Shown here: positions 1 to 60,489 of the stretch, one piece after another | Layout: each line of letters begins with the position of its first letter | Numbering within the stretch: the first letter of the stretch is position 1 | Assembly: GCA_030141605.1 (NCBI GenBank) | Contig: JAQGDQ010000096.1 | Span: 310,001 to 374,000, forward strand | DNA length: 64,000 nucleotides | Source of the DNA: Tubiluchus corallicola | Lineage: Eukaryota > Priapulida > Priapulimorpha > Priapulimorphida > Tubiluchidae | Reading direction: 5' to 3' | The notes under the pieces: generated by a model | Seen by the model: the letters and a program-made list of their open reading frames with translations, nothing else | What the model was told of the DNA's origin: nothing | Database searches by the model: none | Program-made: the position numbers and the translations under genes

Positions 1-1870
1 GTACTTATTTTGCACATACAAAGTAGACTTAGCAGCAAAAATTTCTTTATCAAGATCCTCGGCTTTATTGTTTAGTGAATTCATTTTCTCCTTCAGTTGT
101 GTGATGAAAACTCCCTGTTTAGTCAGTTGATCACTCTATAAAGTAAAACAGACGAAAATGCAATTAAAAGGCATTTTTAGCATAAAGAATTGAGTACCAC
201 TCAAACGTATAAATTAACAACAGATCCAGTTTTATTACATTGATTTTAAATGTTCTGTATAAGATATTAGGAGTGTTAATGTTGAAATAAATCTATACAA
301 GCAATTTTCATGTAAAGAAACACTTTACTGGATAACATTGCAGTTGTAAGAAGAAATTACTTTGAAAATTACTTACTAGCTGCAAGTTAGCCTGCTTAGT
401 TTCACTTGTAATTTGACTATGCAAAACCTTCACTTCTTCTCCAATAAATTTCCTTATTGCTGCTTCCTGGGGACAAAAATAAAAAAAATTCAAACGAAAA
501 AGAAAGTGCCATAGCTAATCACAAACTGCAGCGTTATCATTAATATTTTCATAATACTAAATTGTACTACAGTTTGCATTACAAAACAGTAGAATAAAAT
601 ACAAAAGTTGAACAAAGGATATGGCTGTCATAGTCTCGCATTCTGAATAACTGTACATATACAGGTATTTTTCTAGAGAAACAATGTCAACCTATACAGC
701 ATTAATTGTATCATTATGCTTGTTTTTCTCATTAGTTGCGTGATACAGCTACGCGTGAGTGGGGTCAGCAGTTGCATGATACAGCTACATGTGTGTGGGG
801 TCGGCAGTTGCGTGCATCTGCATAATATTATTTTACAGCAAAAAGAATGACAAAGTACGCACCTACGTCATACGTATCAAATCGAATGAAGAAAATTGAT
901 ATATCAAAAACATATGTAGAAATGCTAACTGTAATGCTTTTTTTATAAGTTGAAAGTTTATTATCTTGGATTGGATTCAATAATTATAATATAACGGGCT
1001 TACTTTAATAAATTTACACTTTGACTGAAACAATCTGTGATCACTGACATGTTGCAATGTACAGATTCAATTTAATAGTTGTAATATTTAATATTCGGCG
1101 TAAGACTATACTATTACTGCTTATATCATTATTTAGAAAGCAAGCATACCTTTAAAACTTAAAAAAAGGTTATATTTTCCATCTGTCAAGACTATACTCT
1201 TACAAAGTTACACAACTAATTTCACTGTGCTATGCACTGCACTAAAATGTTGACAAGCAAATATACTGGTACTGCTAAACATACCTGCTCAGAAGTTAAC
1301 TGACTGCTTTGACTATTATACATTTCTAATATCATTATTCTTAACTTGTCATTTAAATCCTGAACCTCCATTGGTGGTACTGGTTTATCTGTTTCCTGAA
1401 AAAGACACACGATGTAGCCTATAAAATTAAAAGTGACTAAACAACAGTAAGGTAATCTGCAAGTCTAGTTTAGACAGACAAAAAGTTACTTGAAGACTGT
1501 TCCATGTGAAAATATTAATGCACCACATAGCAACCACATTACTATCAAATTCCGTCCATCATCAGTATTCTGTTTCAATATCGTAATAGATATGAATGCA
1601 CGGCACCACACCAATAATTAGAAATGCTAAGGTAGCTTTGCTCTCACTGCTGCACAAGGATTTGCCACTGGTACAGACCCTATCCTGGCTATGTTCATAT
1701 ATGCACTGTATGTAAATGTTTTTGTTCTTGTGCTATTAATAAAATAAAATAACATTTCAGAAAATTTCCCAACAGTACCTTCAGTGAGAAAGTTGGTAAT
1801 TTTGGTAATGAAGGCGTAACCGGAAGATTCTCTATAATTTGTTCCCTGTTTTCATAAACTTGATATCCAC
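1..1870 (-). CDS. SUN-like gene exons 12-15: luminal stalk, coiled coil, open at window edge
   Basis: Exons 1779-1870, 1285-1395, 377-466 and 1-135 all join in phase 0 after the first. The product begins GGYQVYENREQ and goes on through Pro-rich stalk sequence. It then becomes heptad-rich and charged (VQDLNDKLRIMILEMY; EAAIRKFIGEEVKVLHSQ; FITQLKEKMNSLNNKAEDL), the pattern of the luminal trimeric coiled coil of SUN proteins. Each acceptor is a clear pyrimidine-AG and the donors are gtactg, gtatgt and gtaagt. The last exon could end at a GTATGT near base 20 or continue past the window; this cannot be decided. Introns here (467-1284, 1396-1778, 1871-2168) hold nothing recognisable. Confidence 0.75.
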
Positions 1871-4800
1871 CTAAACAGCAACAGTTTTTTTTATTTAAAA
1901 TCTTGCAATATCACTGACATGCCAATTTAAATTAAATTATGAATGCAGATATTAACCAGTTTGTTTTTGTTGGATGATTTCACTTTTCTGTTACAACTTT
2001 AACTTGACATTGTACATTTGTAATTGGTTACACATATTCCAGCTGCTTTCAAACAAATTTATATATCATTTTAGTCATTTAAATTAAACTTAGCCATTTC
2101 ATTTCTGCAAGAGTTTTACATGCTATTTGCTTTTAAGAGAATTCAAAAAAAAATTAAAAATAACTCACCAGTTAACAGTACAAGTGGTATGAGTAACAGA
2201 GGTAACCAAACACAACAAGCATGACGACTGGAATAAATTAAAAACAAGCATAAAAGACTCATTACTCATTAGGTTCAAATAATTGACAATTTACCCAAAA
2301 AGCATGTCCAACATTTTCAGTATAGCTATAACTATCTGTACACTCATAAGAATTACTAAATGTATCCTCGCATCAGATTTTTGACTAAAATAGAAACTTT
2401 GCCAAAACAATGCATTTTAACACACATCAGTAGAAGAAAAATGCATCAAAATTAATTCTTAGTCACCACCAAGTGATAACCTTAAACCTTAATGACAACG
2501 CGTCATAAAAAGGTTAGCACTTTAGGATTTGACAACAACAGGTCAAACGAAACAGAGGTAAGATAATATCGGGAATTCTCACTAGATGGCACTAACTGAA
2601 CTCACCGTGAAAGCATCCAAGCATCAATAAGTGAGACATACTCCCAAACAGATATCACGTATCTATAAATCCATGCCCTGATAGAGACAGTCTCTTTTAG
2701 TTCCTGTCTAATATTTTTAGATGGGTCAGATGGGACTGCTGAATTTACAGATCTTTGAACAATAGAAACAACTGATAAAACAGGGCGAAACAAAAACGAC
2801 AGCCATGTTCTCACCAAGTTGAATAGGAAACTCAGAAGCAGAAAAGGAAGCCAAAGTGGAAGAAGCAAAAACCAACCAATGCTATGCGAAAAAACCCAAG
2901 AATGGAATTGTAATATTTTCTTTCTAGTAACGTCAAAAAGAGACCTGTTCACTGCTTTAGATTCAGTATGTGCATCAAAAGCTTCAGTCTTTTTGCTCCT
3001 TGTTTCAATACATTCACTATTCTGAGAACTTCTTGTTAATATGCTTGAATCAGCCCCAGTTATCTTAGAGAACAAAATGACCGGCAGATACCAAACCATT
3101 CGTCCAATACTTGTGACACTTGTGCCAATCAGCTGAAGTTTGGACAACAGCCACACGTCAAAAAGTCCAATTACCCGCAGCAACCAAATCACACAGAACT
3201 TAATGCATTGCGCTAAATAAATAGGGAACATAATAATATGATAAAACGGGGTGAAAACTGAGCGAAAGAAGCTATTCTGAGGAACCTCCTGTACTTCCCT
3301 TTTTCCTGCACTTTGCACCAGGTGCACAGTCTTTTTAGCAGTGTACATTGTAGTGTGGCCTGTTTCGCTCGAAAATTCATCTCGATGACCTTCTTCATGT
3401 TGCTCAAGAGTGGATGACGACCTACTGACAACAGATCCAACTTTTGACAATAACCACATATCCAGTAGAAGAAAGTTTTGCAGTATCCAAACATTTGTAC
3501 AATATGCAGCATTTGCAAGGTAAACAGACCCGAGGAAGAGATAATGAAACGGTGTCCTAATAACACCCTTACATTCATGATCAAACATTGATTTCCTTAT
3601 CTCATTTGTCTGTTTTTGTCTTTCTTTACTCTGTACTGGAATAACTAAATCATACAACTTTTGAAAGGGTAAGGTAAGAGAAACCAAACCAAACCAGAGG
3701 ACATGGCGAAACATGTCAATGAAATTTGTATGTTGAACATTTTCAATGTTCTGTGAATCAACGGATGATTTCCACTGGGTGAGCATATCTCCAATCAGGA
3801 AAAAAGGTCCAAGAACAAGTGCAAGCATCCCAATAAATAAGTAAAAAGGTGAAAGGAGAACATGTAGTATAGTAAAGGCACATTCTTTTAAATAATGTGT
3901 CAACCCTCTGTCACTGCCCTGTGTAACCTCTTCTATGATCAGAACATCGGTTTCATCGTTACTTTCCACGACTGCAGCTTGGCGAGTTGAATACCTTCTA
4001 GCAGGTTTTGTGGATGATTTCACTTCAAGTGAACTCATTAACAGTTTACGCAAAACGTCAAAAATAAAGTAAAATGGGAAACTCAAAAGCATAGCAACAT
4101 TAAACATTAGCGTGAAAGGAAAAAGTACAAGTTTAGAGATGAATAGCCACAGCTTTTCATGAAATTCTTCTGTATCATCTCCTCCGTTCAATGTATCTGT
4201 TTGTGTTTCTTCTATAAGATCCTTTTCACAATGGCGTCCAAGTCGTTTTCCAACTACTTCATGTTCAGTATGATGAGACGTGAAAAAAGCATATCTTACT
4301 TGGTTTAACCTTGAAAGAAAAAAAGCATCACTTTTAGAAACTTTTTGTAAAAACCAGGCAGCAAGCCAATAAATGGACAACATGAGATAAAATGGAATAG
4401 AAAAAATGTAAGATAAGATTAATCCAACTTTGCTGTGGGGTTTTTCAATTTCCTTGTCCTCCTCTCCTTTCCTGAGCTCACTCACCATATCGACTTCAGC
4501 GCTCAAAATTCCTGCAGCTTTCAAGATATTGCTAACTCCATCACGTAACATAAACAAAATATGCCTGATTACAAACAATGGAAAGAGCAAAACAGTGACA
4601 CAAGTTGTGAACAATGTCATTAAACCAGAAAAGCGTGAATCTACTTCAGGTGTTTCTCTGACCGATGTCCAGCTAAGCACACACTGTGGGATAGCGAAAA
4701 ACGGTCCAAAAACAGCAAAAAAGCAACCTTGCAATAAACAAAATGGTGACAAAACTATGGCGGTTAAAACTTCAAAGATTTCCCTTGTAATGGAGGCCGA

Positions 4801-7800
4801 TTTGTCTACAAATGGCGTCCTGTCCTCAGTAGGCACAGCCCTCGTCTTACCCCTGGTCCTCATCGCAATAGGTTGTTTATCAGTTTTATGTAACCCTACA
4901 CTTTCTAGAACATACAGAAATAAGTACCAAGCAAAATGCAGCAGCCCACTTAAAGCATGAAACGGCAGCAACAGAATATTGCAAAGAACCGACCAAAGTG
5001 CACTGAAGACAGGTGCATGTGCTGCCCTCTCATCTTCTGGAATTACGCCAGGTTCATCTTGTGTCTGGTCAATAAATTGCTCAGACTTCCAGCTAGACAT
5101 TATTGTAGGAATCATCAAGACTGGCCTTACTATCATTAAAAAGGCTGTCATTAACAGATAAAAAGGTGAAAGCAAAACGTCAAACAAAATAGCTAGGAGC
5201 TCAGAGAGAATTGATTCAGGCTTGTCTTTCTTAATTAAAACAGCTTCTTGTTCTTCATCATCACTGAGAGACGTGTATTTTCTTTGTGACCGTCTTGTGG
5301 TTCTTGTAATTTGTTTCGCTGGCCGTCTTTCCAATACGGGACGCTCTGTTTTTCGAGTCAAAGCGTAACTAACATTCTCGTAAATAAGATAACCTGGCAG
5401 TATAAAAAGCGACTCGATAACCAAGAAAAACCCATTGATGATCAGCATATCCAAGCGAAGGATAGTTTCCCAGAAGCGTGTAAAAACTGAGCCATGCTTA
5501 ATTTTCTCAAGTTGTTCAGTGTCTTCATACTGAAATTCAGAATCTGTAGCTGGTGTGTACATTTCTTCAACTTCTAAAACTTCAGATTCGTGAATCAATT
5601 CTTTCATTCGCCTGGCAATGTACTTTAACGAAGAGAAGGGTAAAAACATAATGGTTTTCATGAATTCACAAAAAGATTGTATCAAGCTCTTTTGTGTGTA
5701 AGTTGGTGCTCTTAAATCAGTGAAGTAAGTTTGCGAAGCTTTGGCCTTCATCCAAGTAGCAATCCCTCTAAATATTCCAATGATGATACAAGCTGCATAG
5801 TATGGTGACAACAAGATCGTAAGTAAAAGGTTTCCTACAAACAACAAAGTACGTTGACTAAAAGTTAGCAGAGCATGGGTGATTTGGTACAATCCATTTC
5901 TCAGTGAAGCAAAGATTCCCACTGGCTGCCGCTTAACGTATCGTGAGTATCGGTCGTCTGAGATGCTCCACATGTCACCGTAATATCTATTAATAAAAAA
6001 TACAACTAAATTAAGAAAATTCAACATTATTTTCTTTCAGTACCCTAACTACAGATTGCAGAGACGGCTCATATACTGAAGTAAAAGTACTGTCAAAGCT
6101 AAAGCTACTACAAAACAATCAATAGGAGACTATGATCACTACACTAATACCGAAGAAGACTATCTATGAGAAAGCAAACATTAACACCACATGCTAATCA
6201 AGAAGCCAGTCAAAGCAAGCTATAATCTGTGCAGTTCACCACACAAATGAGAAGCCAAAGTACCAAATATGTGCAAAAACTACCGCCAGACAAGGAAAGC
6301 ATATAATAAAAACAATAGACAGCGTTTATCACTGAATGGGAGTGCCGTAAACACATGCATTCTACTATGTGAGCAGGAAAATTATCAACTTTTGAAAAAC
6401 ATGGCACCATATAAATTTTGTGAAAAAACAGTTAAGAAAGAATTACAAAAAAGTAATCCAGTTACTTTCAATTTTTAGGCAAAAAATAATTTGTCTCAAA
6501 CACCAATGTTAAACAATTTCTTAGAGAGTAAGAATTTAAGATAGGTGGCGGTTATTTCACCAATTAGCAACCAGCTTTACATATAACTTCGAGGAAAGAA
6601 CTGACCATGATACAACCATCACCAAAACTAAGAAGAGTAGAAGTAATCATACATTTCTTGGAAAGACAATCCAGAAACTATCACCGGACATGCAAAATTA
6701 CCCAAACAATGTGAAAACAACATCAGCAAAGCAAAGGGGACTAGTTTCATGATTTTCAATGTCATACAGTCAAAGTTTCAAAATGTATGAATCAAAATGT
6801 TGATGGTAGCGGCAGACCAAAGGATGAAAAAAAGATTAAAAAGGCACGATAGCTTCCAAAAGCTGATACCCCTTCAATTGACTGCCAATCTTTTGAAAGA
6901 TCCACTAAATTCTTTCACTTAGTTTCAATTTTTTACTGCATTATGTTACAGAGAGATTTGCAGATTGTAGCACAAAACTTAACATAAAAAAAATTAAGAA
7001 ACTGTAGTAAGCAGATGTCCATTGTTTGATACAGATGAGAATAGCTTACACAAAATGTGTGAGGTAACTTTAACAATAATTAGAATTGCCTGCCTGGGAA
7101 GAGAAATTGAATTATATACTGAAATAGGCTTGTAGGAGTATATGTCTGATTTCTCCATGTAAGTTAAAATATCAATAACAAGTCAACATATTTACTTTTT
7201 GATAGTTTGAACTTTACTAAAATAAATATAGGCCTAAGCAAATGTAATCAATAGATATCACAGAAATATGAGCTAAAACTAGATAAACAGGTTATGACAT
7301 TTCAGATAATTTCCTTATTTGTTATAGTGATCAAATGTTATAAAATTTCATGCAAAATGCACTGACAGTACAAGCAATAAACTTCAAAAAATGTTAACAA
7401 GTTCTAACAAAAATTTACAGAAAAAGCAAATACAAATCACAACCCTCATGCAAGCAAACAAGTATATGCACATATGACTAATGCTAAGCAAATAGCTGCA
7501 AGAAATAAATTAGCAAATTGCGGGTGCTTTAAAAGGGACAAAAGTTAATTTATCATCATACTCAAAAGTTTAAGTAGCAATTAAAGCTCAACAGCATTTA
7601 TCAGAAGTGGTTTCAGTTTAAATGTACAATTCATGTTTTGCTCACAGCTCCCCAAGTATCGGTTTCACTTTAGCTAAGCAACAGTCCAGAACTACAGAGA
7701 ATTTGTTGCACTGTGGATGGCAAGGAAAATAATTTGTCTAAATAAAAACATGCACATGAATTGTAATAAGTGGGTGAGTTGTAAATGTTGCATGTGTATT

Positions 7801-10800
7801 GGTAAATTTGTCATTGTGTTTTGTTATATTTAAAACATTGCCAACAGCAAAAAAATTATGTTTTGATTTTAATATTTCTGCACATATCATTTCCAATTAT
7901 TAAAATTACAATACCAGGTCCAAGATAATCAGATATCTCACATTAAATTTATTGATAACATTTTGTATAGTGGAGGGGGGCATTGCAGTCACAATTTCAC
8001 AAAGTCAGTAGCTGAAGCTAGCTTAATTGTTTTTCAAATTGTGGAAGTTAATAATAACTAAAAATAAAACAATGAAATGCAAATGAATTGAACTTTGTTA
8101 GCTCAAGCATTCTGCGCAGGTAGTTAAATACCATTCTCATTACAATACCACACTGAAAAATATATGATTACTTTGCAGTTAACTGTTTTAAAATTTGAAG
8201 GAAAAACAAAAATGCCGAAATACACTTTTAAATATACCGAAATTTTATTAAGTTCAGTTATGTGTCTTGCGAATCAAGAAATGGATAACAAAATGAATTC
8301 TTCAGTCTCTATCTGTTTGTTTCTCTCCCTCTCACTGTCTCCCTCTCCGTCTCCCCCCTCTCTCTCTGCCCCTCCCTCCCTCTCCCTCTCTCATATTTTG
8401 ATGAAAGCACTGTAACGTAAACATTTAAAAAAATCATAAATCAATGAATTTAGATTTGATCACTGTAAGAAGAGATCCAACTTAAGAGTATGTACTCAAA
8501 TTTGGGACAGGTGCATGCAACGACTGATAACCAGCGAAGGAGGGTGCAAAAATTTGGTCGTCTGAATGGAATGAGGTGGTAAGTCGAAACTGACTGATTA
8601 TATTTCATTTTACTGTATTTAGTTAATCATTTGTTCAATTTCGCACAGTTATCAGTCGTAATAGTCCTCTGTTACTACAATGTTGTGAACTGAATAAATG
8701 AAAATAGTGCATAGTGAATAAAATAGGCTAGTCATGAGCAAAAGCATGTGTATTGAAATCAGTTAGAAACAGCAGTGGTCATATGGTGTGTAATGTGGTA
8801 CATACTAATATAGGTTTGATAGTATATCCTTGTAGCGCACCACAGTTTATATATGTTTTTTTTCACTTTGATTATTTCAAATGGTTATGATACGCATTTT
8901 TTCTAAGTTGAGTGGGGCGAAAACTCAAAAGCAATTAGTTGCCCCTTCTCACCAAGACCCTGATTTCTGGCACGAAGGCAAATCGAATATATTTTCTTAA
9001 AATCTCAGTATCCCTAAAAATAACTAAGTTTTGAAGTTCCTTCACATAACCCATGAAGAAAGTTGAAAGATTATACAAATCAGTAAAACACTCAACCACT
9101 GCTGTAGAAGATGATTATTAAAAATCATTCTAATAACAAGATTTTTGAGTTATGAGTGCAATAGAGTGGAAAATAAAAAGAGCTATAACCAACAATTTTT
9201 TCCTTTACATAATTATGTCTTTTTTCTTTTACACATTTCCAAATGTGAAAGTTAAAAAACTGTTGTAATCAAAATTTAGTGTAATTTTTAGTGGTATTAT
9301 AATGAGAATGGGACAACAAGATAAAGAATTTGGAAACTTACATAACAGCAGACCATGAGGTCTGAGATTGACTATTTGGACTGCCAGCTTTGAGCGGCGT
9401 TTGAGTACTGGAGTTAACTTTCTCTTTAGGCCTAGTAATTTTAATATTTAACCACTATACTATTAAACATTAAAATTAACAATTTTGCTACATTTAGTAA
9501 ATTATTTGTATGTTTTTACCTACATCTTAACAACCAACTTTTAGGAGATAAAAGAAATAACCATTATTAAACTCGTATGAATTTAGAGTGTGTGATATGG
9601 TAGTAGATACCTGTCTACAGTGATCTAACTTCATGGTGAAAATCAAGATCAGATGAAGCAAGTAATGCAACACCCTGTCTAGCACTACCCATTTACCAAG
9701 TTTGACTGACTTGGTTAGTGGCACTCGAGGTATAATACGCAATTTTTGCATGGGTGCCTAATGTAAGATCCTATTTCTAGGATTTCTTCTGCCAACTAAT
9801 TATTTAGGTACAAAGCCTGCTTAGCTTGGCAACTTTGTAGAGAACAGTGGAGAACGATCAATGTTTGATATAAGACTTTACCATTTTCATGGTCAAAGGT
9901 TGAAAGTCAAGACCAAATGTTCCATAGCAACCCACTCTTTCACTATTAGTTCATATTACCAAATATAGTTGGCTTATCAACAAGTTTTATCACAACAGAA
10001 TGCAAAAAATTACTATAATCAGTTTGAGTAATACAGGTTTTTCAATATTACCGCAGTGATATTATATACGAAAAATATCCCCAACATAGAAGATTTAATC
10101 ATAATCTCTGCAATGAGAGAAGCAAAAATATGCGGTACAAAAATGCCATTCTTTGACACGAAGTCAACTTAACAACAGTCTTCAGTGTTATTAATTACCT
10201 AGATGATGACGGGTAAACTCTCCCATGGCGATCAGTGACAACACCTTTCGTAAAAATCTGCCAAAACGACCTAAAATGTAAGATAGCAAGCGATCAATGT
10301 TTTACAAATATTTGTAGTTGTCAGTTTAAAACAATCTTCAATTAAGTAGAAGCAGCAACACTAGAAAAGAAGCTCTTTTATCTAAAAGTAATAATGAAAA
10401 ATGCAATGCAATTTACCTGGACAAAAGCCAAGAGTCAATTGCAAGAACCAAGGATCCACCTGTCATCCACCAAATCCACGAAAAACATTTCACTACAATA
10501 AACAATTTTAATACTATTAGTTGTACGACATAAATAAATTCCTTTTCATTTATACATTATGCATATCCTTTCCACATATTCAAAGAAAAATGATAAAATT
10601 GCATTAATTAATTAGACTATGATTGTGATTGCCAGAGATTATAAACCACTACAGTTTATTTCAACAGTTGGAGAAAGGAAAAAGATGCTGAAAAGCTGTG
10701 GACTAGTCGGGATTTGAACCCGAGACCTGGGATTAGTACTTGCTTTCTCTGCCAGTTGAGCTATCAGTTAACATAACAGAGCCTGAGATTTCCTTCTTGT

Positions 10801-13800
10801 AGCACACTTTGTAGCCTGCTCTGTCACGTTGTTTGGTAGCAGAGCACGGGAGTATTAATCCTTGGTATAGGGTTCAATTCACGACTAGTCCACAATTTTT
10901 CAGCATCTCCATTCTTTCTCCAACTGTTGAAATAAACAGTAATGGTTTATAAAATCAGGTAATCACAGTCATAATCTAATTAATTAGTGATATCGTTAGT
11001 TGCCAGCTAATTTGAGAAACATGTCAAAACTTCTTCATGATATTACAGCAGGTTTTCAGTAACTTACAGTAAAGGTTGAACACTGCAAGCTGTACCACAT
11101 AATACCAGGTTAAAAGAGCCTATGACCAGCAGGTATTCTTATTAGCAAAAAAAGTGACTTACCAATGAAATTATAAAAACGAGTAGAAAAACTTTCAGGC
11201 GTTCTGCTGGTTGTTGTAGGTCGTTCAGCATCTTCATCAGATGAAACATCTGCACCTAAATGATCATGAGCATTGCACACATTCATGATAAAGCAAAAAA
11301 AATATCATCCACAAGCAAAAACTAATGACATCCAAATGAAGTTAAAACAAAGCTATCTTAAACTGATTATAAATTCTAACAATTTGTTTTTTATTGTATT
11401 TCATTTGCTGTACTCATGACATCAATTTTTAACAATCTGTCAGTGTTGTCATTTTAGTTAGTTAGTCTAGACAGTCATGATTTTTACTAGTCTAAAGTGG
11501 AGTTTATATAACATGTAGAGTGCCGAATAGATAAAATCAATTTATATCATTTTCAATAAGCACGTTTAAACTGCCTGCGTATGCGTTATTCTTTTGCTGC
11601 AGCAATTTCCTACTGATTTCTTCCTGCAGGCTATTTCGCAGGTGGAAAACATATCCGCATACTACTTAAACAAACACCAATTACTATGGGGAGGGACGAC
11701 GCTTGATCTTCCAAAACCGAATTAAATCTGAATCTCACATTTTTCCAGTTTCCAAAACCGAACCGAATTCAAATTTTTAATTCAATTTTGGAATCAGTGT
11801 AGTACAATGAATGTTTCATCAAATATATATATATATATATATACATAAAATGGTCTTGTATAATGATCTTGTTAAATACAGCAAAAAAGAAAATAATGCT
11901 AGTACTATGCAAAAAGGTATTATGTACCAAGAACACAGAGAGAAATTTTGGCATATATTATGACTGCACTTTCTGATTTGAAGCTAAATTAATAACGTTT
12001 AGAAAGTAAAAATAAATTAAACTCATAGATTGCTAAAATATCATTTGTGTTTAGAAGCACAATAACCAAAATCTTGTGCACAAGTTAGTGTCACTGCAGA
12101 AAATATTTAACGTCAGTCGTGCGTTAAGCTACGAATAATTTATGCAGTGCATAACTTTCACACAACCTCGCGAACACATTAAAGACGTCAACATGGTGAA
12201 GCACACTTTGCAAAATTTAACTTTTATTAGAGATTAAACTGGCAAGAAGGGAAAGTAAGAAAATATTATAGCACTAGTTGGCAGCGAATTTGCTCCTTAA
12301 TTCACGGTAAACACGAATTATAAAGATTGCTTCGCACTTTATTACAGAACCCCAAATCAGATGTGAAGCAGTTAAAGTAAAACCGGGAAGATCCGAATCA
12401 AAGCTTCGTCCCATCCCTAGTCATTATTCTTCCTCAGCAAAAGCAAAAGCTATTCTTACATTCTTTACATGTTTAGAACATTTTCTGGAAGCCCTGCTAC
12501 AGCTAACACACGTACGTATGTGTGTGTGTGGTACGCATGCATGCACATAAGTGTGGTAAGCTTGCATACTACAAACTAGGTGGTAAAATTGGAAATCTGA
12601 TAAAACTTAGGAAAAGTAAAAGTCACTAGCTGTCAACAAAACAACAAAAATTCCATTTGACTATAAAAATATAACAATAAAATACTTGCCATACGGCACA
12701 CCATATGAACCCGTTGCTGATTTTGCTGAAACAAATAAAACTAATATATAGACACATTTTAGCAAATCACAATGCCTGCTAGAAAAGAATTGCCAGCAAG
12801 AAATTCGCGCCATACATATTACATACAAGCTAAGCGGTATATCAGGAGTAGTACTAAACTAAGGAAATATGACGATCAAGCAACATTAAAACTTATATAA
12901 GAAACTAACAATCACTTGAATAACCAATACTTAAGACTACTGTATACTGGCTTGGACAATGCGGTAAATTCGGCAACCCAAAAGCCTCTACTTATACAAT
13001 AAAATAGAATTTTCAAGCTCATAACAGCTGCCAAAAAAATATGAACACGCAATTTAGTCCTTCGTACAATTGGGTTTAATAAAACTTCCTGATATTTATA
13101 CATCCGGAGTTATTCAAATTTAAGATGCTTATTGCCTGTATTTTCAATGACCATTTTGTATAAACAGGGAGCAGTTTACGAACACCTTGCTGAAACATCC
13201 TTTGAACAAAATTTAAAAATATTTTACCTGGTTCTAAACGAACATTTGATCGTGACGTACTACGGCTACTAGAGTTTCTACGAGGTCTGCTGCTTATTGC
13301 TTCTACATAAAGAAAGAGAAATATACTACAATATATATATAGAATTTTAAAAAATTCTACTAATTTCACTAGACTTTACTGCCAGTTCATAAGGCTATGA
13401 AGTTATGAACCACATTCTGCAACACAAATGAGTTACAGACCAATAATTAATGCCAGTGGTCAAGCACCAATTAATCTCTATCCACATATTACCAACAAAA
13501 TTATGATGTACATGCTATAAAATTGGTTAATTCACTTGTTAAAAAAGACAAATTACAAAGTTCGCAAGGTAAAAAATGTTACCTTGCATGTAGATCTTAC
13601 AACTATTTTGCTAAAAGATCCCTTTTAGCGAGAAACCATTGCACAGAGATGTTTTCAAAATTTAATAGATTTTTGTGAGTACATTAGCCAAAACCCTATT
13701 GTTACTGTTTGCTTTATAACGATAACGTTGCCCTTAAAGTTATCTCAAAAATACAGCTTCCTAAAACCAGTGCTCTAGGGATGATACTCTTTTAATGTCT

Positions 13801-16800
13801 GCAACATTCACTATGTGTAGAATTTGGGACATTCACATAACAATTGCTAGTTGAAAGAATATCATTACCTGGTGATTGTGACTGTTCAAAATCACGTTGG
13901 AGCATACGAGCTATGGAGGGTGTCGCATACGATGATCGTGCAGAACCAGGAGAACTGCGAATACTTCTTCGTGACATGTTTGGAATCATATTCTCATGTG
14001 TTTCTACACGTTCAGGTTTCCGGTAGCTTGGACTCTTGGCGTATAAGTAGTCTGTTTTGGGGGCTGATCTGGAATCATCAATCAATCTTGGTAAATTTTC
14101 GCTGTGTAACAAGTTTTAGGAATAATAACACTAGTTGAAAATTAAAATGCACTGATATTAGTAAATAGCGAAAGTTAAGAAAAATGTTGTTGTTTTTCTA
14201 ATTAAGACAAACAATTGTAGTAAAGTTTAGTAATCAGCATGAGTGATCCAAATTTGGTCTCGAAAATAAGAATAAGGCTGCACTACCAAAATTAAGCAAC
14301 CAGCAATCAACGACATGGTAAGACAATAAGGCATGAAGCTAAAAATCAATTAAATTATTTTTGTCAACACTGGTCATTAGAAACACTTTTAGCCATCACA
14401 GTGAAGTCACACCCACCACAAGAAAGTAAAAAATGTTTACCAATGCTATACATTTCAAATAACATAGCCTTTAAATACCAAAAACTCGTTAATAAATTTA
14501 TCGCAAAAAACAAATTGACCTATTTATGTGTGACATGAAGTAAAAAAGACAATTATGTTAGAATTACATAAGGAATGATTATAATGACTTACTCGTCAAA
14601 TGGCACATAGCTAATATTTGCGTTTATAAAACTGGATGTATATGGTGTAAAGGGAGACTTTGTCACAGCAGGATTAACTTGAGTAACTGTCACTTGCTGT
14701 GTAACATGTTCTTCTACATGTCGTAGAGTGGAACGCGATGGCAGCACTACTACAGGAACATCACTATGTCGACTGGATCTGCTGCTGGATCTACGTCTCC
14801 GACTTCTGAATACAACAGATAAATAGCACATTAAAAATTCATAACTAGATATCGGGATGCATAAAAAATCTCTTTGATCACAATATTATAAGTAGTGAAA
14901 TCGCTTGAAAGTTACTACACTGATGTTGCAGACACTTATACATCAATGCCAAAAATTATTGATCATTCCCTTAAATTTGCTCAAAGACACAGAAGTTTTA
15001 AATTCACAGCTCAAAAAGGGCCAGAAAAAATCTGTCACAATAGTTAAAATTTACAGCAAGTGTTCTATGTGTTCACCATTATTACTGCAAATTAGACGAA
15101 GTCATCTCTTCCAGTATATGACACAGTTTCTCACTTCCTTAAAGGAAAACCGGATAATTGTGTAAACACGAGTTCAGAATAAAGAATGGTCTAAAATACT
15201 GAAAATAGCTTATTTTAAATCAAAGCTTACATTAAATAATAATTCCCTCGGATACTCAAATTTCGTTAAACTTTCAAAGCTACGCGCGGCTCAGTGAATT
15301 TACTAAGATTGGCAGTGGTGCCTTTTTGTTACGTGCGCATAGCCAACAAATAGAAGGCGGTACCGTGATAACCACGATCATTAACTGCTGTGTTAATTTC
15401 ATGATGTCATATGATGTAAAGCCCATTTTTCGTGACATCATGCGTTTAAGCAGTACTGTAACACCTATGCAAACATGCTTGACGTGCAAGGGAAGACGCC
15501 TACCATTGCACAAACTGTGGTTAGTTTCTGACGTAAACAATAGCTGTGTTCAGTTGCTGTTAACTCTCTAAGCTAATTATTCAAACATAAGGAACAATTG
15601 TTAACTTTTATATGCAAGAAAATGTATATTTTGGACAGTAAATTAAAATGAGATTGAGTCTAAACAACCGTCCGGTCTTCCTTTAAGGGGCTTCTGGTCC
15701 CAGAATTCAACAGTTTTTGCCTTTAGTTCCTTTGCACCAAACGGCTCTGTGCAGCCATTGTGCACTTTCTTTTTGAGAGAATTCTGTATAGCGTAATCCA
15801 AATGATTAAGTTCCATTTTTTCTTGGCAACAAATTTTTATCAGTGATTTATTTTCTGTGGTAACCATGAGGTGAACTGGTTCATTTCTTTATTGTGATCC
15901 TCCCATCTATTTAGTACTTTATTCATCAATGTGGGTGCTTTTCAACTGATTACAACTGACATAATTCCGGCATTTAATTTTTTAACATAGAAAAGTTTTT
16001 TGCTGTAACTTAAGAACCAATAAAATTATAAACTTGCAACTCTCACAGCCAAAAATATTGTAATGTATTGTAATATCATGCTGGGAAATTTCTCAATGCA
16101 ATCTACCATCAAAACAGCTGTGCCTATAGCGATCATCACGGAATCTAAATTTTCAAGTTTTATAATTTATTTATTGACGATTTACAAGCCATACAATTAC
16201 AAAACATTACATAAACAATGCAGTACATTACAATGAAAAAAACTACACAGGCAAAACCACACAATCGGGGGATAATCACCAACATAACACACAATAAAAC
16301 ACAGTAATAATAATATTATAAAATATGTACAGCGTCGCTGTTAATACAAGTTCTGTGTGCAATAAGACAGTACGTATCTGACAAAAAATTTCAAGATGAA
16401 TTTTTCTAGCTTTATCTAAGTAAAGGATTTTCTTGTGCTTTGAGTATCATTCCTAGAGGTGTTGAAAGTTAAATTACTTGTGGTCTGTAAACACTGCCTT
16501 TTAAAAATGCCAACTGTTTTAACTATCGACAAATGTAGATTCCACATAACACAATTCCTGATATAAAAAATGCATACGAGGACCGCATGAATATGACGCC
16601 AAACTGCTGCTTTTGACCGTTAAAGCACCTCACAATAATTTTGTGGATAAATTTTTAAGCTTCCATTGTAACTAATGAACTTAGCATTTAATGAAATCGT
16701 TAAAAATTATCTATTATAAATTACCTAGCAGGTGCAGTTTCAGTGTAGGCACCTTCGCTCGCAGTATCTCGGACACGCAAACTATAACGTGTTGCACCTG

Positions 16801-16840
16801 CTGGCCCAACATTTGTTTCATATCCAGAATCTAAATCCAT
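1..16840 (-). CDS. SUN1/SUN2-type inner nuclear membrane protein, 5' part (partial)
   Basis: Fifteen exons join in one frame: 16725-16840, 14593-14805, 13869-14101, 13228-13302, 12690-12725, 11163-11249, 10417-10492, 10199-10270, 9342-9407, 2606-5986, 2169-2227, 1779-1870, 1285-1395, 377-466 and 1-135 (open at the window edge). The product has at least about 1,600 residues. Residues 1-253 are basic and Ser/Arg-rich (nucleoplasmic type). Then come a hydrophobic segment ending IDSWLLSR, a giant hydrophobic region, one strong transmembrane helix (CVWLPLLLIPLVLL) and a predicted luminal coiled coil. That order, and the step from IDAWMLSR to a WLPLLL helix, matches animal SUN1/SUN2 as I know them. 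SUN proteins tether KASH proteins to form the LINC bridge across the nuclear envelope. The SUN domain should lie left of base 1 and is not visible. The start has A at -3, G at +4 and an in-frame stop upstream. Confidence 0.78.
2169..2227 (-). CDS. SUN-like gene exon 11: main transmembrane helix
   Basis: A 59-nt exon with acceptor ttattccag and donor gtgagt, entered in phase 2 and left in phase 1. It encodes RHACCVWLPLLLIPLVLLT, the strongest helix outside the giant exon, immediately after the IDAWMLSR motif. In vertebrate SUN2 a similar D-x-F-x-L-T-R motif is followed by a WFLLPLLLL helix, so this is probably the conserved inner-nuclear-membrane anchor with the downstream exons luminal. Confidence 0.8.
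2606..5986 (-). CDS. Giant exon 10 of the SUN-like gene: tandem hydrophobic modules
   Basis: This 3,381-nt exon encodes about 1,127 residues (326-1452 of the predicted protein) without a stop. Acceptor ttattaatag and donor gtgagt fit the neighbouring exon phases. About 15 hydrophobic stretches alternate with charged linkers. Three A-type blocks read L-L/V-LSPF-Y/C-LL, then GPFF or RPVL about 15 residues on, then a W-K/T-S end (exon residues near 271-300, 411-440 and 709-738). B-type blocks carry an L-x-PF core. C-type blocks (near 812-848 and 910-949) end LLDMWLLSK and LFDVWLLSK. The exon ends SLIDAWMLSR. Linkers repeat too: Arg/Thr/Ser-rich then acidic, such as RRYSTRQ and RRSQRKYTSLSDDEE. 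SUN1/SUN2 normally total about 700-900 residues with only a short equivalent segment, so this is a lineage expansion (inference). Topology and the number of real membrane crossings are unknown. Confidence 0.85.
5987..9341 (-). other. SUN-like gene intron 9 (3.4 kb)
   Basis: The sequence between exons 9 and 10 is AT-rich and shows no convincing ORF, RNA gene or transposon on either strand. The only structured piece is a CT-rich microsatellite at about 8308-8393. Confidence 0.6.
8308..8393 (+). repeat. CT-rich simple repeat
   Basis: Imperfect (TCTC/TCCC)n tract. It accounts for the Ser/Pro/Leu-rich reading frame seen here, which is not a gene. Confidence 0.85.
9342..11249 (-). CDS. SUN-like gene exons 6, 8 and 9: polar linkers around the exon 7 module
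   Basis: Exon 6 (11163-11249) begins DVSSDEDAERPTTTSRTPES. Exon 8 (10199-10270) must use the acceptor acattttag: the closer ggcag at 10258-10260 would break the frame to exon 9. It begins SFWQIF and ends RHGRVYPSSS. Exon 9 (9342-9407) is a Ser/Gln-rich linker ending WSAV before the giant exon. All are short (66-87 nt), phase-compatible and hydrophilic except the first residues of exon 8. The acidic-Ser patch in exon 6 looks like a CK2-type phosphorylation region (inference). Confidence 0.7.
10417..10492 (-). CDS. SUN-like gene exon 7: single-copy hydrophobic module
   Basis: A 76-nt exon (acceptor tttattgtag, donor gtaaat) encoding a Trp-rich hydrophobic stretch (FSWIWWMTGGSLVLAIDSWL) that ends in IDSWLLSR with the Arg codon split in phase 2. 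The giant exon ends with the homologous IDAWMLSR and the same split Arg codon. The exon therefore looks like one free-standing copy of the module amplified downstream, equivalent to the WW...LLDVFVLTR segment of vertebrate SUN2. Confidence 0.75.
10699..10770 (-). tRNA. tRNA-like sequence (SINE-type head), left arm
   Basis: Read on the minus strand it has an A box (TAGCTCAACTGG) and a perfect B box (GGTTCAAATCC) inside a CGGG/CCCG T-arm, at tRNA spacing, followed by ACTAGTCC. The acceptor stem does not pair well and the anticodon arm is poor, so it is a tRNA-derived repeat or pseudogene rather than a working tRNA. Confidence 0.5.
10824..10892 (+). tRNA. Degenerate tRNA-like sequence, right arm, facing the left one
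   Basis: Plus-strand counterpart: GTTTGGTAGCAGAGC (D-arm-like), then GGGTTCAATTCACG (decayed T-arm) and ACTAGTCCAC. Its orientation opposite to 10699-10770 makes a head-to-head pair. Confidence 0.4.
11493..11640. mobile_element. TAAAGTGG-type MITE, decayed copy
   Basis: It begins TAAAGTGGAGTTTATATAA and shares internal blocks (GATAAAATC, GTATGCGTTATTCTTTTGCTGCAG, TTTCCTACTGATTT) with the intact copy at 57096-57311. The right terminal repeat is not recognisable. Confidence 0.5.
11685..12420. mobile_element. hAT-like non-autonomous element
   Basis: The left end ATGGGGAGGGACGACGCTTG is mirrored by the right end, whose reverse complement begins CTAGGGATGGGACGAAGCTT. Termini of the GGGATGGGACGA type are common in hAT-family MITEs (from memory). 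Flanking 8-mers match only loosely. No transposase is seen. It lies in the intron between exons 5 and 6 of the SUN-like gene and includes an AT microsatellite at 11822-11843. Confidence 0.45.
12690..12725 (-). CDS. SUN-like gene exon 5: 36-nt microexon with a GC-AG donor
   Basis: Acceptor tttgtttcag on the 5' side. On the 3' side the only junction that keeps the downstream exon (11163-11249) open is the non-canonical GCAAGT donor. The nearest GT, four bases further on, would put a TGA four codons into the next exon. The product is K-S-A-T-G-S-Y-G-V-P-Y with both flanking codons split in phase 1. It could be skipped without a frameshift, because it is a multiple of three and both ends are phase 1. 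Confidence 0.65.
13228..16840 (-). CDS. SUN-like gene exons 1-4: basic Ser/Arg-rich N-terminus
   Basis: Exons 16725-16840, 14593-14805, 13869-14101 and 13228-13302 encode residues 1-213. The start is MDLDSGYETN; basic Ser/Arg clusters follow (SRRRRSSSRSSRHS, SRRSIRSSPGSARSS, RPRRNSSSRSTSRS). These resemble the lamin- and chromatin-facing N-termini of SUN1/SUN2 and could supply nuclear localisation and phosphorylation sites. All four junctions join in phase: AG|A Arg, GA|C Asp, G|AA Glu and G|CA Ala. No catalytic motif is expected or seen. Confidence 0.75.
14806..16724 (-). other. SUN-like gene intron 1
   Basis: It holds copy A of the 460-bp dispersed repeat (15232-15686) and AT-rich sequence. 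The ORFs at 14905-15165 and 15643-15867 show no recognisable domain and I do not call them. Confidence 0.55.
15232..15686. repeat. Dispersed repeat, copy A
   Basis: About 460 bp aligning by eye along its whole length with 38421-38886. Shared landmarks are CTTTCAAAGCTACGCGCGGC, GGTACCGTGATAA, CCATTGCACAAACTGT, GCAAGAAAATGTA and GATTGAGTCTAA. No terminal inverted repeats or coding capacity are seen. Confidence 0.75.
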
Positions 16841-19027: not shown

Positions 19028-20404
19028 AAATAAGTAAAGTAGAATATTTTGAGGAACTGTCAGTTTCAGTGAAAACGGAAGAAATATAATCTCATTACTC
19101 AAATTGTTTACACGGCCATAGCATTATTGAAAGAGGGAATATAACTGATAGTAGGATGACAAAATTTCCCCAAACTTCTTTAACATTTTTTTAATTGTCT
19201 GTTAATTGAAAAATTTAAGATCTCGAATCAAAAATCTGTTAAAAATCTAAAGAAACTCTTGCCCACACGCACACTGTGGCACACTGTGACATTTTAGTGC
19301 ACGAATTGTTGTTAAATGTATTATATAAAAATGACTTGGACTAAACTTAATGCGAACAATAAACTATACTACAACTGGCATCATGATTATACAGAAATGT
19401 ATGCACAAAAAAAAACAGATGCAGACAAAAAATTAAAAAAGGAGAATAATGCGTAAGCTCAGCCACAAGATTACCTCGCTTTAGCCTCAAGAAATTAATC
19501 AGTATAGAAACAATAATTCGAAAAAATATCAAATCTTCTGTCCAGAGACAGAAAAAGTCGCATTCAAACTAAACTGAAAATATAAACTAAGACTGAAACT
19601 TTACATGCTCAGATACCGATGACACATATCGTTGTAAAAAAGGTATTCTGCGCGTTGTAAAGGATGCTCACACAGGACAACCTCTCTAATGGTCACTTAC
19701 GAGCTCGAGCGAAGCCAGAGTCAGCTTATACCTAGAATTTTTGCTCGACTCGCTGAGAGCCGGGAGTTCTGAGAATGGCGCACGTTTGCGTGAAGACGTC
19801 CCTAACATCGTGTATTCGTCGACTCATCGATTTTGAACTGATTTAAGAGAGGCGGCCCCCGCGTAAGACGATTACGTGACGCTTATGAGATCTGTATAAT
19901 GTGAGTAGACACTTGCGCATGTGCACAAGCACAAATCGAAGAACCGGCTATTTTGCTACTCAATTTGAAGACATTTAGAGTAGTCTGCAAAGTCCATTTA
20001 CAGTTTTAAACCTTATTGGATGGACTTCTGATAAATCTGCTGAGTTTTTACTGATCATACCATTCTGGGGTTTCGCTTAATCAGGAGCGACAACTCTGAA
20101 TCTCTGAAGTGCACAGCAAATTTTCTTATTGTTGAATTGATTGATTAAACGATATTGAAATTCATTTCGTGACTATTTGAGATTCATATTGCCTATATTG
20201 ATTTAGCTGCCTGGCTGCCGGAAAATGGCTGCAGCAGATGCTACTATTCGATTGTGCTGTGGTTGAAGATGTCACTGAAGCAACTCGGTAGTACAAAAAT
20301 TAGATGGTATGCCAAGAGGGACAGTGGAGACAGCGTTTTTAACAGTAAAGTACTTGTTGGTGCTTCCCTGTGGTGAGGGTGAAGTTCCTCATAATTCGTC
20401 TACA

Positions 20405-20600
20405 ATGGGCTTCACTCGCAGACGATGTTTAATGGTACTGACAGCCATTTTGTGCACAACGTCATGCGTCAGCTTAGGTTTATCCATTGTTACCGATGCC
20501 TGGCTGTATTCCATAGAGAAAATACCACACCCCACGAATATCACACAAGAAATCTTCAAGTATGCACAGTCGGGTTTTTTCCGTCTGTGCTACCAAGTAG
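20405..20600 (+). CDS. TARP exon 1: TM1 and first half of the extracellular loop
   Basis: It encodes MGFTRRRCLMVL through SGFFRLCYQV and ends on a phase-1 G before donor gtaagt. TM1 and the conserved TDAWLY/SGFFRLC motifs identify the family. The frame is open upstream to an ATG at 20309; family members start close to TM1, which favours 20405. Confidence 0.9.
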
Positions 20601-21316
20601 GTAAGTAATCAAAGGATTTACATTAGAAGAACGTTGTTGTTGTTGTTTTATCTTAAATTTTCTATTAGTTCAATAAACATGACAACATTCATAATGTAAA
20701 ATCTCCTGTGGTGGTTTAAGATTATTGCGACTATCAATGTGGCGTCGTCTATTGACAATAAAGAGCGAATCTTATGCAACTGCTGATTCAGTCAGGTCTA
20801 GCTATATTTTTTCATCTTTTCTATGATTTTAAATCAAATCTGTTAAAAGTTATTATGCATATTAGGATACAGTTACTGTTGCCACTCTTTGGTAGTGGTT
20901 GTTGTCGTCTTGCCGAAATGGTAGTGGCGGTGGCGACTGGCGAACTTGATGTTACTAACTTAATAGTCCTGCCATTGCTCCTGCGCTGCAGTAAATTGAT
21001 GCTGCCATATTGTCATCGCTGCTGCCACTTAAGTTGATAATGCCGCATTGACACCACTGTTATCGCTATTGCTATTGCTGCTGTAAAATGATACTGCCGC
21101 ACTGCTACTGCTGCTATTACCGTTGCTCTATAAGTTGGTGCTACTGCAATGCCACTGCTGCTATAACAATTGTCGCTGTTGCTCATTGTTGATAAAGCTG
21201 CATTGCTGTCACTACCACTGCCATAACGTTTACTGCTTTAAGTTGATACTGCCACATTGCCTTTGCTGTAGCCGCTCTAAATTGATAATACTGCATAGCC
21301 GTAATTGTCAACGCCA

Positions 21317-59748: not shown

Positions 59749-60249
59749 TTAAAGTTGAAGTTTAGGAATAGATGAAAACTGTACCTCGTTTTCAATTACG
59801 CATGCCTGGTACTTGTTTCGCAAGATGTCTGCAGTTTCGGTGAACTGATGCAGAACAGCAAACAAGGCGGACAAGTGCTGCCGAAAAGCCGACAGGATCA
59901 TTTTCGGATTGTCGTCTTCTACAGGCGTAACTGCGTTGTCTAACCCTGGTCCACAAACAAGTTCTGAACGAATAGACTTCAGTAAGGAGTACAGAGTGTA
60001 GAGATTAGCATCAGCTGAACGATACATCACGTCTTCCATGTTGTTGTAGTTGATATCTCTCGGATCTAATGCTACATCCTTCAGACGATGTGGTATCAAC
60101 ACAGTATCATCCATATCCTCAACTGCAGTAATGAATCTGTTCATGGCCATTAGCAAAGAATTCTTCGATATCTGTTCTTCTCTGGAAAAACGCCTCAATG
60201 AATACTGTACCGTTGATTCTTGCCTGGAATGTTTCCTTTGCTGGGACAT
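59749..60249 (-). CDS. Spot14 / MID1-interacting protein 1 family protein
   Basis: A single uninterrupted exon of 166 codons plus stop. After a basic Ser/Gln-rich N-terminus (MSQQRKHSRQ) come SLLMAMNRFITAVEDMDDTV and LIPHRLKDVAL, the hallmark N-terminal motif of the family (AMNRFI-x-AV-xx-MD-x-TV-x-P-xx-L-x-DV). LYSLLKSIRSEL and a C-terminal FRQHLSALFAVLHQFTETAD...NKY helix follow, also conserved. Vertebrate MID1IP1 is about 180 residues and uninterrupted in its coding part, like this one. Family members activate polymerisation of acetyl-CoA carboxylase and promote lipogenesis; MID1IP1 also binds the microtubule-associated MID1. The frame stays open 10 codons upstream, but with no ATG. A TATA box lies about 240 bp upstream. 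Confidence 0.88.
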   Translation of the reverse strand: MSQQRKHSRQESTVQYSLRRFSREEQISKNSLLMAMNRFITAVEDMDDTVLIPHRLKDVALDPRDINYNNMEDVMYRSADANLYTLYSLLKSIRSELVCGPGLDNAVTPVEDDNPKMILSAFRQHLSALFAVLHQFTETADILRNKYQACVIENEVQFSSIPKLQL

Positions 60250-60489
60250 TGCTGGTGATTTCTTTAGCAGACTGTTCAATACACTAGAGTTAACACAGTT
60301 GCGCCTATGAATAAGAAAGATGCCACTGAAGCTTGTTGCTTCGTTTGCAATTCAATCGTCCCCTTCCGAACCTTGCAGAAGAAGAAATTGCTGTCGTTCG
60401 CTTTTGAAAGGGCGATAGTTAAAGCTGCAATAGCTACAGATGCCGCTAGAATTCTAAATCCTGCTAACACAGCTGGCTAGGTACTGGGC

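What the first reader, a model, noticed from the sequence alone, without database searches (positions are those of the whole stretch)
2606..5986. A giant exon turns the short pre-transmembrane segment of a SUN protein into an approximately 1,100-residue hydrophobic repeat region
Seen: one stop-free 3.4-kb exon, phase-compatible on both sides, with about 15 hydrophobic stretches separated by charged linkers, sitting exactly where SUN1/SUN2 have a single short hydrophobic segment before the transmembrane helix. Known: SUN1/SUN2 are about 700-900 residues and single-pass at the anchor. Inference: the module was tandemly amplified, creating a SUN protein that could line, bend or scaffold the inner nuclear membrane through hairpins. 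I know of no described SUN protein of this form.
Basis: partly seen in the sequence, partly recalled or inferred. Interest (0 to 1): 0.88.

Follow-up and report, generated by a model that had tools for sequence, protein, structure and literature searches.

The report
Priapulid SUN protein with membrane-module array
A nuclear-envelope anchor protein (SUN protein) from a priapulid-like worm carries, in one giant exon, about thirteen copies of a greasy helical module where most relatives have at most four greasy segments, which would give it an unusually multivalent grip on the inner nuclear membrane.

Summary
The exon is real and the coordinates are exact. A 23-exon gene can be read across the window edge: 1,966 aa, with a SUN domain (Pfam E 2e-43) in the last exons. 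Exon 10 (5986-2606, 3,381 nt, phase 2/2) is stop-free and encodes an array of 13 related modules (hydrophobic arm, LLSPF-type core, second arm, in four of them a second Pro exactly 14 residues on). The tandem-repeat claim survives hydrophobicity-preserving shuffles. It is not unique: the best database match, an uncharacterised Priapulus caudatus protein (50% identical over anchor, coiled coil and SUN), has the same kind of array in the same place, bracketed by the same two LDxWLLSR boxes. Of 220 SUN proteins counted, 215 have 0-4 hydrophobic segments before the anchor; five have 6-15. My searches found no description in print. Hairpin topology is not shown: one module alone is modelled as one continuous helix, and varying segment number argues only for no net crossing. 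Best explanation: repeated non-spanning, membrane-lying anchors, an amplified version of the H1/HM1 segments of SUN1/SUN4, giving tight inner-membrane retention, perhaps switched by splicing. Function and expression untested.

The parts
2606..5986 (-). Exon 10, giant exon, 3,381 nt, phase 2/2, residues 335-1462 of the gene model
   Evidence: Open frame, splice sites and phases, stop counts
16725..16840 (-). Exon 1 with the proposed ATG
   Evidence: Hand-built gene model with consistent phases; start codon not supported by homology
14593..14805 (-). Exon 2
13869..14101 (-). Exon 3, holds PKTDYLYAKS / NMSRR motif also seen in other invertebrate SUN proteins
13228..13302 (-). Exon 4
12690..12725 (-). 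Exon 5, GC-AG donor, least certain exon
11163..11255 (-). Exon 6
10417..10492 (-). Exon 7, first LDxWLLSR box (IDSWLLSR), aligned with LDGWLLSR of Priapulus
10199..10270 (-). Exon 8
9342..9431 (-). Exon 9
2169..2227 (-). Exon 11, anchor (transmembrane) helix RHACCVWLPLLLIPLVLLTG
1779..1870 (-). Exon 12
1285..1395 (-). Exon 13, coiled-coil-like by eye
377..466 (-). Exon 14, coiled-coil-like by eye
20..135 (-). Exon 15; exons 16-23, with the SUN domain, continue left of the window to contig position 299663 (L002, L003)
5716..5847 (-). Module 1 (LLSPYYAA)
5551..5682 (-). Module 2 (FLPFSSL)
5077..5208 (-). Module 4 (LLSPFYLL, P-x13-P); matches Priapulus 455-498
4876..5007 (-). Module 5 (LLLPFHAL)
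4657..4788 (-). Module 6 (VLSPFCLL, P-x13-P)
4492..4623 (-). Module 7 (LLFPLFVI)
4306..4437 (-). Module 8 (SIPFYLM)
4030..4161 (-). Module 9 (LFPFTLM, P-x13-P)
3928..3954 (-). Acidic-hydrophobic linker motif ETDVLIIEE (looks like a SUMO-interacting motif, label recalled)
3760..3891 (-). Module 10 (LLSPFYLF, P-x13-P)
3580..3711 (-). Module 11 (TLPFQKL), weak copy
3463..3594 (-). Module 12 (RTPFHYL), weak copy
3442..3465 (-). Internal LDxWLLSK box (LDMWLLSK)
3136..3267 (-). Module 13 (MFPIYLA), ends in a second internal box FDVWLLSK
2770..2901 (-). Module 14 (LLLPLWLPF), weak copy
2606..2628 (-). Terminal canonical box IDAWMLSR at the exon 10 donor

Best explanation
This is the SUN1/2-type SUN protein of a priapulid-like worm. 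Shown by sequence: between two copies of the conserved pre-anchor box LDxWLLSR, a proline-centred hydrophobic module was amplified to about 13 copies, in one in-frame, symmetric exon, and the same kind of array exists in Priapulus caudatus. Inferred: the modules are helices that lie in the nucleoplasmic leaflet of the inner nuclear membrane without net crossing, as the pre-anchor hydrophobic segments of SUN1 and SUN4 do, and the charged linkers stay in the nucleoplasm. The protein would be stapled along the membrane over many points, giving strong retention and low mobility at the inner nuclear membrane and possibly sensitivity to lipid packing, while the anchor, coiled coil and SUN domain work as in any LINC complex. 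Because exon 10 can be skipped in frame (839 aa remain, with one box and the anchor), splicing could switch the array on and off.
For: Gene model with 23 exons, all phases consistent; SUN domain E 2.4e-43 and SUN1/SUN2 crystal chains, best E 5.1e-78. Priapulus homologue with the array. P-x13-P spacing 4 observed against 0.38 expected in exon 10 (p 0.0002) and 3 against 0.20 in Priapulus (p 0.0014), the strongest of 22 spacings in both. Module similarity above class-preserving shuffles: z 8.6 own, 5.5 Priapulus, 10.9 between them. A model of the 13 own modules hits 3 Priapulus places at E 0.001-0.04 and 0 of 1,105 decoys. First arm is amphipathic (p 0.002). The number of pre-anchor segments runs through 0,1,2,3,4,6,7,10,14,15 in SUN proteins whose C-terminus should stay in the lumen, so segments should not each cross once. 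In SUN4 the pre-anchor motif HM1 does not span but gives membrane affinity and lowers mobility, similar to the N-terminal motifs of SUN1 (PMC10112980, passages and section 10). SUN1 splice variants differ just before the anchor (PMC5371868, passage).
Against: No RNA, protein or localisation data. The amphipathic signal is clear only in arm 1 (arm 2 p 0.04, arm 3 p 0.20). Several modules are hydrophobic enough to span a bilayer (windows up to 2.34 on Kyte-Doolittle). The whole-exon model has pLDDT 36. The single-module model is confident, but isolated hydrophobic peptides tend to be drawn as straight helices (recalled). No KASH partner was looked for.
Confidence: 0.5

Rival explanations
1. Hairpin scaffold: each module is a re-entrant or two-crossing hairpin, and the array wedges, bends or lines the inner nuclear membrane like reticulons or caveolins.
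For: Hydrophobic blocks of 16-36 residues in exon 10, most with an internal Pro, and the recurrent Pro at +14 fit a kinked hairpin; no net crossing is needed, as the segment counts demand.
Against: AlphaFold2 on one module with 9 module sequences gives one helix over residues 2-54 with pLDDT about 97 around the central Pro. No Pfam family matches exon 10 at E up to 1.
Confidence: 0.25
2. True multi-pass protein: modules cross the membrane once each in an even total, making a polytopic SUN protein with lumenal loops.
For: Several segments score like ordinary transmembrane helices.
Against: Counts before the anchor in the five expanded proteins are 15, 10, 7, 6 and 14, odd and even, though the SUN domain should stay lumenal; linkers are charged, with no alternation that I could see by eye.
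Confidence: 0.1
3. Little or no specific function: a drifting low-constraint repeat expansion, possibly expressed only in a tissue-specific isoform such as sperm.
For: Low identity between exon 10 and the Priapulus protein (26% over the alignment); module pairs only 45% identical in DNA at best; the exon can be skipped in frame.
Against: Module shape, the P-x13-P spacing and the two bracketing boxes persist in two well-diverged species; frame kept open for 1,127 codons.
Confidence: 0.15

Closest known systems
Uncharacterised protein LOC106811235, Priapulus caudatus (P0001, 1,604 aa)
   Same: Same architecture: LDGWLLSR box, array of about 10 Pro-centred modules, LDAWLLSR box, anchor, coiled-coil-like stretch, SUN; 50% identity over residues 1440-1966 of the query
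   Different: Fewer modules; array sequence mostly unalignable; exon structure not seen
SUN1/SUN2 (vertebrates)
   Same: SUN domain, anchor, coiled coil, pre-anchor hydrophobic segments (H1-H3; PMC2919408 passages); SUN1 splice variation just before the anchor (PMC5371868 passage)
   Different: 1-4 pre-anchor segments in the fish and lamprey rows, against 15 here
SUN4 HM1 segment
   Same: A pre-anchor hydrophobic motif that does not span but holds the protein at the membrane (PMC10112980, section 10)
   Different: One copy; no sequence similarity tested
Owenia fusiformis SUN protein (P0002) and two unnamed proteins (P0036, P0090)
   Same: 7, 6 and 14 hydrophobic segments before the anchor
   Different: Not matched by the priapulid module model, so probably separate expansions
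Caveolin / reticulon type membrane-inserted hairpins
   Same: Long hydrophobic stretches of about 30 residues with Pro (comparison recalled)
   Different: No family match; no evidence of hairpin

Membership tests
Classical C-terminal SUN protein (LINC complex) | SUN domain (PF07738) near the C-terminus | tested here: met
   E 2.4e-43, 147.7 bits against cut-off 22
Classical C-terminal SUN protein (LINC complex) | Hydrophobic anchor between N-terminal region and lumenal coiled coil | tested here: met
   RHACCVWLPLLLIPLVLLTG aligned with the Priapulus and other SUN anchors
Classical C-terminal SUN protein (LINC complex) | Trimeric coiled coil | not tested
   Region aligns with Priapulus; no coiled-coil predictor was run
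Classical C-terminal SUN protein (LINC complex) | KASH binding, inner nuclear membrane residence | not testable with these tools
   Needs protein or cells
Mid-SUN protein (SUCO/Slp1 type) | SUN domain in the middle, different neighbours | tested here: not met
   SUN is C-terminal here; a SUCO-like locus is elsewhere in the genome (name recalled)
Reticulon / caveolin / other membrane-shaping family | Match to the family profile | tested here: not met
   0 Pfam families at E up to 1 for exon 10
Reticulon / caveolin / other membrane-shaping family | Monotopic hairpin topology | tested here: inconclusive
   Single-module model is a continuous helix; whole exon pLDDT 36

The most novel reading that the evidence does not exclude
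In priapulids the SUN protein has become a multivalent membrane-lying array, about 13 repeated helices on the nucleoplasmic face plus one anchor, encoded in one splice-switchable exon, so that one gene yields a plain LINC linker and a form stapled along the inner nuclear membrane that could sense lipid packing or stiffen the membrane; pre-anchor expansions of other sequence arose separately in an annelid and in two proteins of unnamed source, making pre-anchor module number an overlooked variable of SUN evolution.
Probability: 0.35. Interest if true: 0.75.

Novelty: new variant of a known kind. Interest (0 to 1): 0.6.

Why it matters
Pre-anchor hydrophobic segments of SUN proteins are known to add membrane retention, and Sun2 binds the inner membrane through a lipid-dependent amphipathic helix (PMC12455280, passage), but how segment number tunes SUN behaviour is, as far as I know, open. 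A natural gene with some thirteen copies, in what looks like the only classical SUN gene found in its assembly, turns this into a testable dose series. Its persistence in Priapulus suggests that predicted multi-segment SUN proteins are more than annotation errors.

Tried and rejected
Independent nested gene: rejected, since the exon 10 to exon 11 join (SLIDAWMLSR-RHACCVWLPL) is the same junction as in the Priapulus protein. No SUN domain downstream: rejected. Lineage-private oddity: rejected by Priapulus. Sequence homology with the Owenia, P0036 or P0090 expansions: not shown; neither module model hits them at E 0.05, and the one other real hit of the combined model (P0122, E 0.04) is weaker than a decoy hit (E 0.01). 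Recent duplication: not supported, best module pairs are 45% identical in DNA against a 27% background mean, whose maximum is also 45%. Exon 10 alone as query found no homologue among 7,985 scored candidates although Priapulus has one: that search is limited to shared words. Self-BLAST of exon 10 shows no internal repeat; the repeat is only visible with centred modules and spacing tests. The modules were chosen by eye (13 in exon 10, leaving out a hydrophobic stretch at about 510-540 whose Pro is at its end; 10 in Priapulus), and the 14-residue spacing was noticed by eye before it was tested over 22 spacings. A first, weaker shuffle gave larger z values (14.4, 8.5, 18.7); I report the stricter one. 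One search counts 220 of 221 proteins (one, P0161, has no segment and was dropped); for 16 the anchor was taken as the strongest segment. The 220 database proteins are the listed parts of two capped searches (best 120 of 151; best 120 of 716) and include many isoforms, so they are not independent species.
Full report
What was checked. The frame is open for 1,144 codons over 2602..6036. Inside the exon the coding frame has no stop and the five other frames have 36, 64, 69, 85 and 90; at the local composition the chance of 1,127 open codons is about 5e-33. The window is positions 310001-374000 of a 642-kb contig of a 343.5-Mb assembly, so I fetched the DNA to the left and read the gene through. 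Twenty-three hand-placed exons with consistent phases give 1,966 aa; all introns are GT-AG except intron 5, which needs a GC donor. Exon 10 is exactly 5986..2606, 3,381 nt, phase 2 on both sides, so that skipping it keeps the frame and leaves 839 aa. A search of the whole assembly with the exon 10 protein found only itself (1 match, 2 candidates scored). No transcript data were at hand.

It is a SUN protein. The part after exon 10 holds the anchor helix, a coiled-coil-like stretch and a SUN domain (PF07738, E 2.4e-43), and matches solved chains of SUN1 (best E 5.1e-78) and SUN2 (best 9.1e-73). A family search of the assembly gave four places from 5 scored candidates: two are exons of this gene, one lies in a contig that also encodes MPSFDEWKQKM, which I read as SUCO, and one lies beside ankyrin-type exons, which I read as HECTD1 (both names recalled). 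So this looks like the only classical SUN gene found in the assembly, with the caveat that the search goes exon by exon and is a lower bound.

It has a relative with the same array. With the last 527 residues as query and the whole protein as length guide, the best of 151 hits is a Priapulus caudatus protein, LOC106811235, 1,604 aa, 50% identical over the full query; the next is Owenia at 41%. The window genome is therefore most likely a priapulid other than P. caudatus; the species was not identified. The Priapulus protein has ten hydrophobic segments before its anchor and local matches to exon 10, the best within the array at own 602-647 against 455-498, 39% identity, E 0.003. Both proteins have the LDxWLLSR box before and after the array (IDSWLLSR and IDAWMLSR here, LDGWLLSR and LDAWLLSR there); this one has two more inside (LDMWLLSK, FDVWLLSK). 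By a pattern for this box, 164 of 221 proteins have one copy, 53 none, 3 two and 1 (this one) four; of the three with two, one is Priapulus and the others are two eel isoforms whose extra hit looks like chance.

The array is a tandem repeat. Centred on the proline of the LLSPF-like core, 13 modules can be placed in exon 10 and 10 in Priapulus, consensus roughly SxVFxxLxxVLLSPFYLLxGIALLLVxGPFxxI. Against shuffles that keep each position hydrophobic or not, the similarity among modules is high: z 8.6 within this protein, 5.5 within Priapulus, 10.9 between the two, 0 of 2,000 shuffles as high in each. Of 22 proline spacings tested, 14 stands out in both proteins: 4 against 0.38 expected (p 0.0002) and 3 against 0.20 (p 0.0014); a spacing of 19 reaches p 0.012 in exon 10 only. 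A profile from the 13 own modules finds three Priapulus modules at E 0.001, 0.004 and 0.04, one place in P0042 at 0.04, and none of 1,105 decoys. These tests were made on modules chosen by eye, and ordinary self-BLAST sees no repeat. The copies are old: the closest, modules 4, 6 and 10, share 34% of residues and 45% of bases.

How unusual. Counting hydrophobic 19-mers before the anchor in 220 of 221 SUN proteins, 26 have none, 78 one, 71 two, 35 three, 5 four, and five have 6, 7, 10, 14 and 15: an unnamed protein P0036, Owenia fusiformis, Priapulus, an unnamed protein P0090, and this one. The best other match of P0036 is a Lingula protein. The module models do not connect the non-priapulid expansions with the priapulid array, so separate expansion is likelier than common descent.

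How it probably works. Segment number before the anchor varies through odd and even values while the SUN domain should stay in the lumen, so each segment cannot simply cross once (inference). Over the 23 modules of both species arm 1 is significantly amphipathic (p 0.002), arm 2 weakly (p 0.04), arm 3 not (p 0.20). AlphaFold2 on module 4 with eight sister modules gives a single helix over residues 2-54, mean pLDDT 88; on the whole exon with Priapulus it gives pLDDT 36 and says nothing. In SUN4 the hydrophobic motif before the anchor does not span but confers membrane affinity and lowers mobility, which the authors compare to the N-terminal motifs of SUN1 (PMC10112980: passages, section 10). 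In mouse sperm a non-nuclear Sun1 complex goes with an isoform that lacks exons 7-10, and with them H1 and H2 in part, and the paper cites these segments as required for inner-membrane targeting and retention (PMC2919408, passages). Human SUN1 has over ten splice variants that differ just before the anchor (PMC5371868, passage). Sun2 is given as a protein whose amphipathic-helix, diacylglycerol-dependent binding to the inner membrane controls its degradation (PMC12455280, passage). Together these make an array of membrane-lying, non-crossing anchors the most economical reading, with retention by avidity as the effect. Hairpins remain possible.

Linkers. One charged linker carries an acidic-hydrophobic motif, ETDVLIIEE at residue 1013, with like motifs in Priapulus (DEDVVMLEE, 582) and P0090 (DADVVIMEE, 1092), and by the stricter pattern in none of the other 218 of 221 proteins; shuffles produce it 0, 0 and 1 times in 3,000. 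It resembles a SUMO-interacting motif (recalled), which would place that linker in the nucleoplasm. The pattern was written after seeing the three, so this is a lead.

Print. The listings of nine answered literature searches show no description of such a SUN protein (one search listed 20 of 160 papers); the only paper with both 'SUN domain' and 'Priapulus caudatus' concerns TERB1-TERB2-MAJIN (passages). Subscription papers are mostly not in that library.

Verdict. New variant of a known kind.

Noticed in passing
window 59752-60351 (-): 200-codon frame with Spot_14 family domain (PF07084, E 1e-22), a MID1IP1/Spot14-type gene.
   Followed up: partly
window 53700-54359 (+): Exon of a PMP22/claudin family protein (PF00822, E 5e-9), looks like a TARP/stargazin-type gene (recalled); 20279-20608 (+) may be its first exon but matches no family.
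   Followed up: partly
window 35122-36237, 37438-38398, 48131-49459, 51151-51418: Large simple arrays: TGAGG x223, a 48-base unit x20 at 94% match with long open frames on both strands, a 20-base unit x68, TCAG x67. The long open frames there are probably repeat artefacts.
   Followed up: partly
window 50198-50684 and 61793-62101 (-): Frames that look like the end of a non-LTR retroelement polymerase and a CENP-B-type transposase DNA-binding part; the two tested frames have no Pfam match, reading recalled.
   Followed up: no
L003 6431-7813 (-), left of the window: 461-codon frame with PRKCSH domain, two stretches (E 5e-28), an ERLEC1/OS9-like gene (recalled) next to the SUN gene.
   Followed up: partly
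P0090 (unnamed source, 2,189 aa): SUN protein with 14 hydrophobic segments before and 12 after its anchor; the most segment-rich of the 120 proteins and own protein.
   Followed up: no
P0042 and P0104 (unnamed sources): SUN proteins with an RRSRRLRGLxPE-like motif in N-terminal linkers, four close copies in P0042 and one in P0104.
   Followed up: no
P0094, P0095, P0097, P0098, P0100, P0101, P0103, P0108 (decapod crustaceans) and P0110 (unnamed): 5-9 hydrophobic segments lie after the anchor, presumably on the lumenal side, and 0-1 before it: the reverse of the priapulid case.
   Followed up: no
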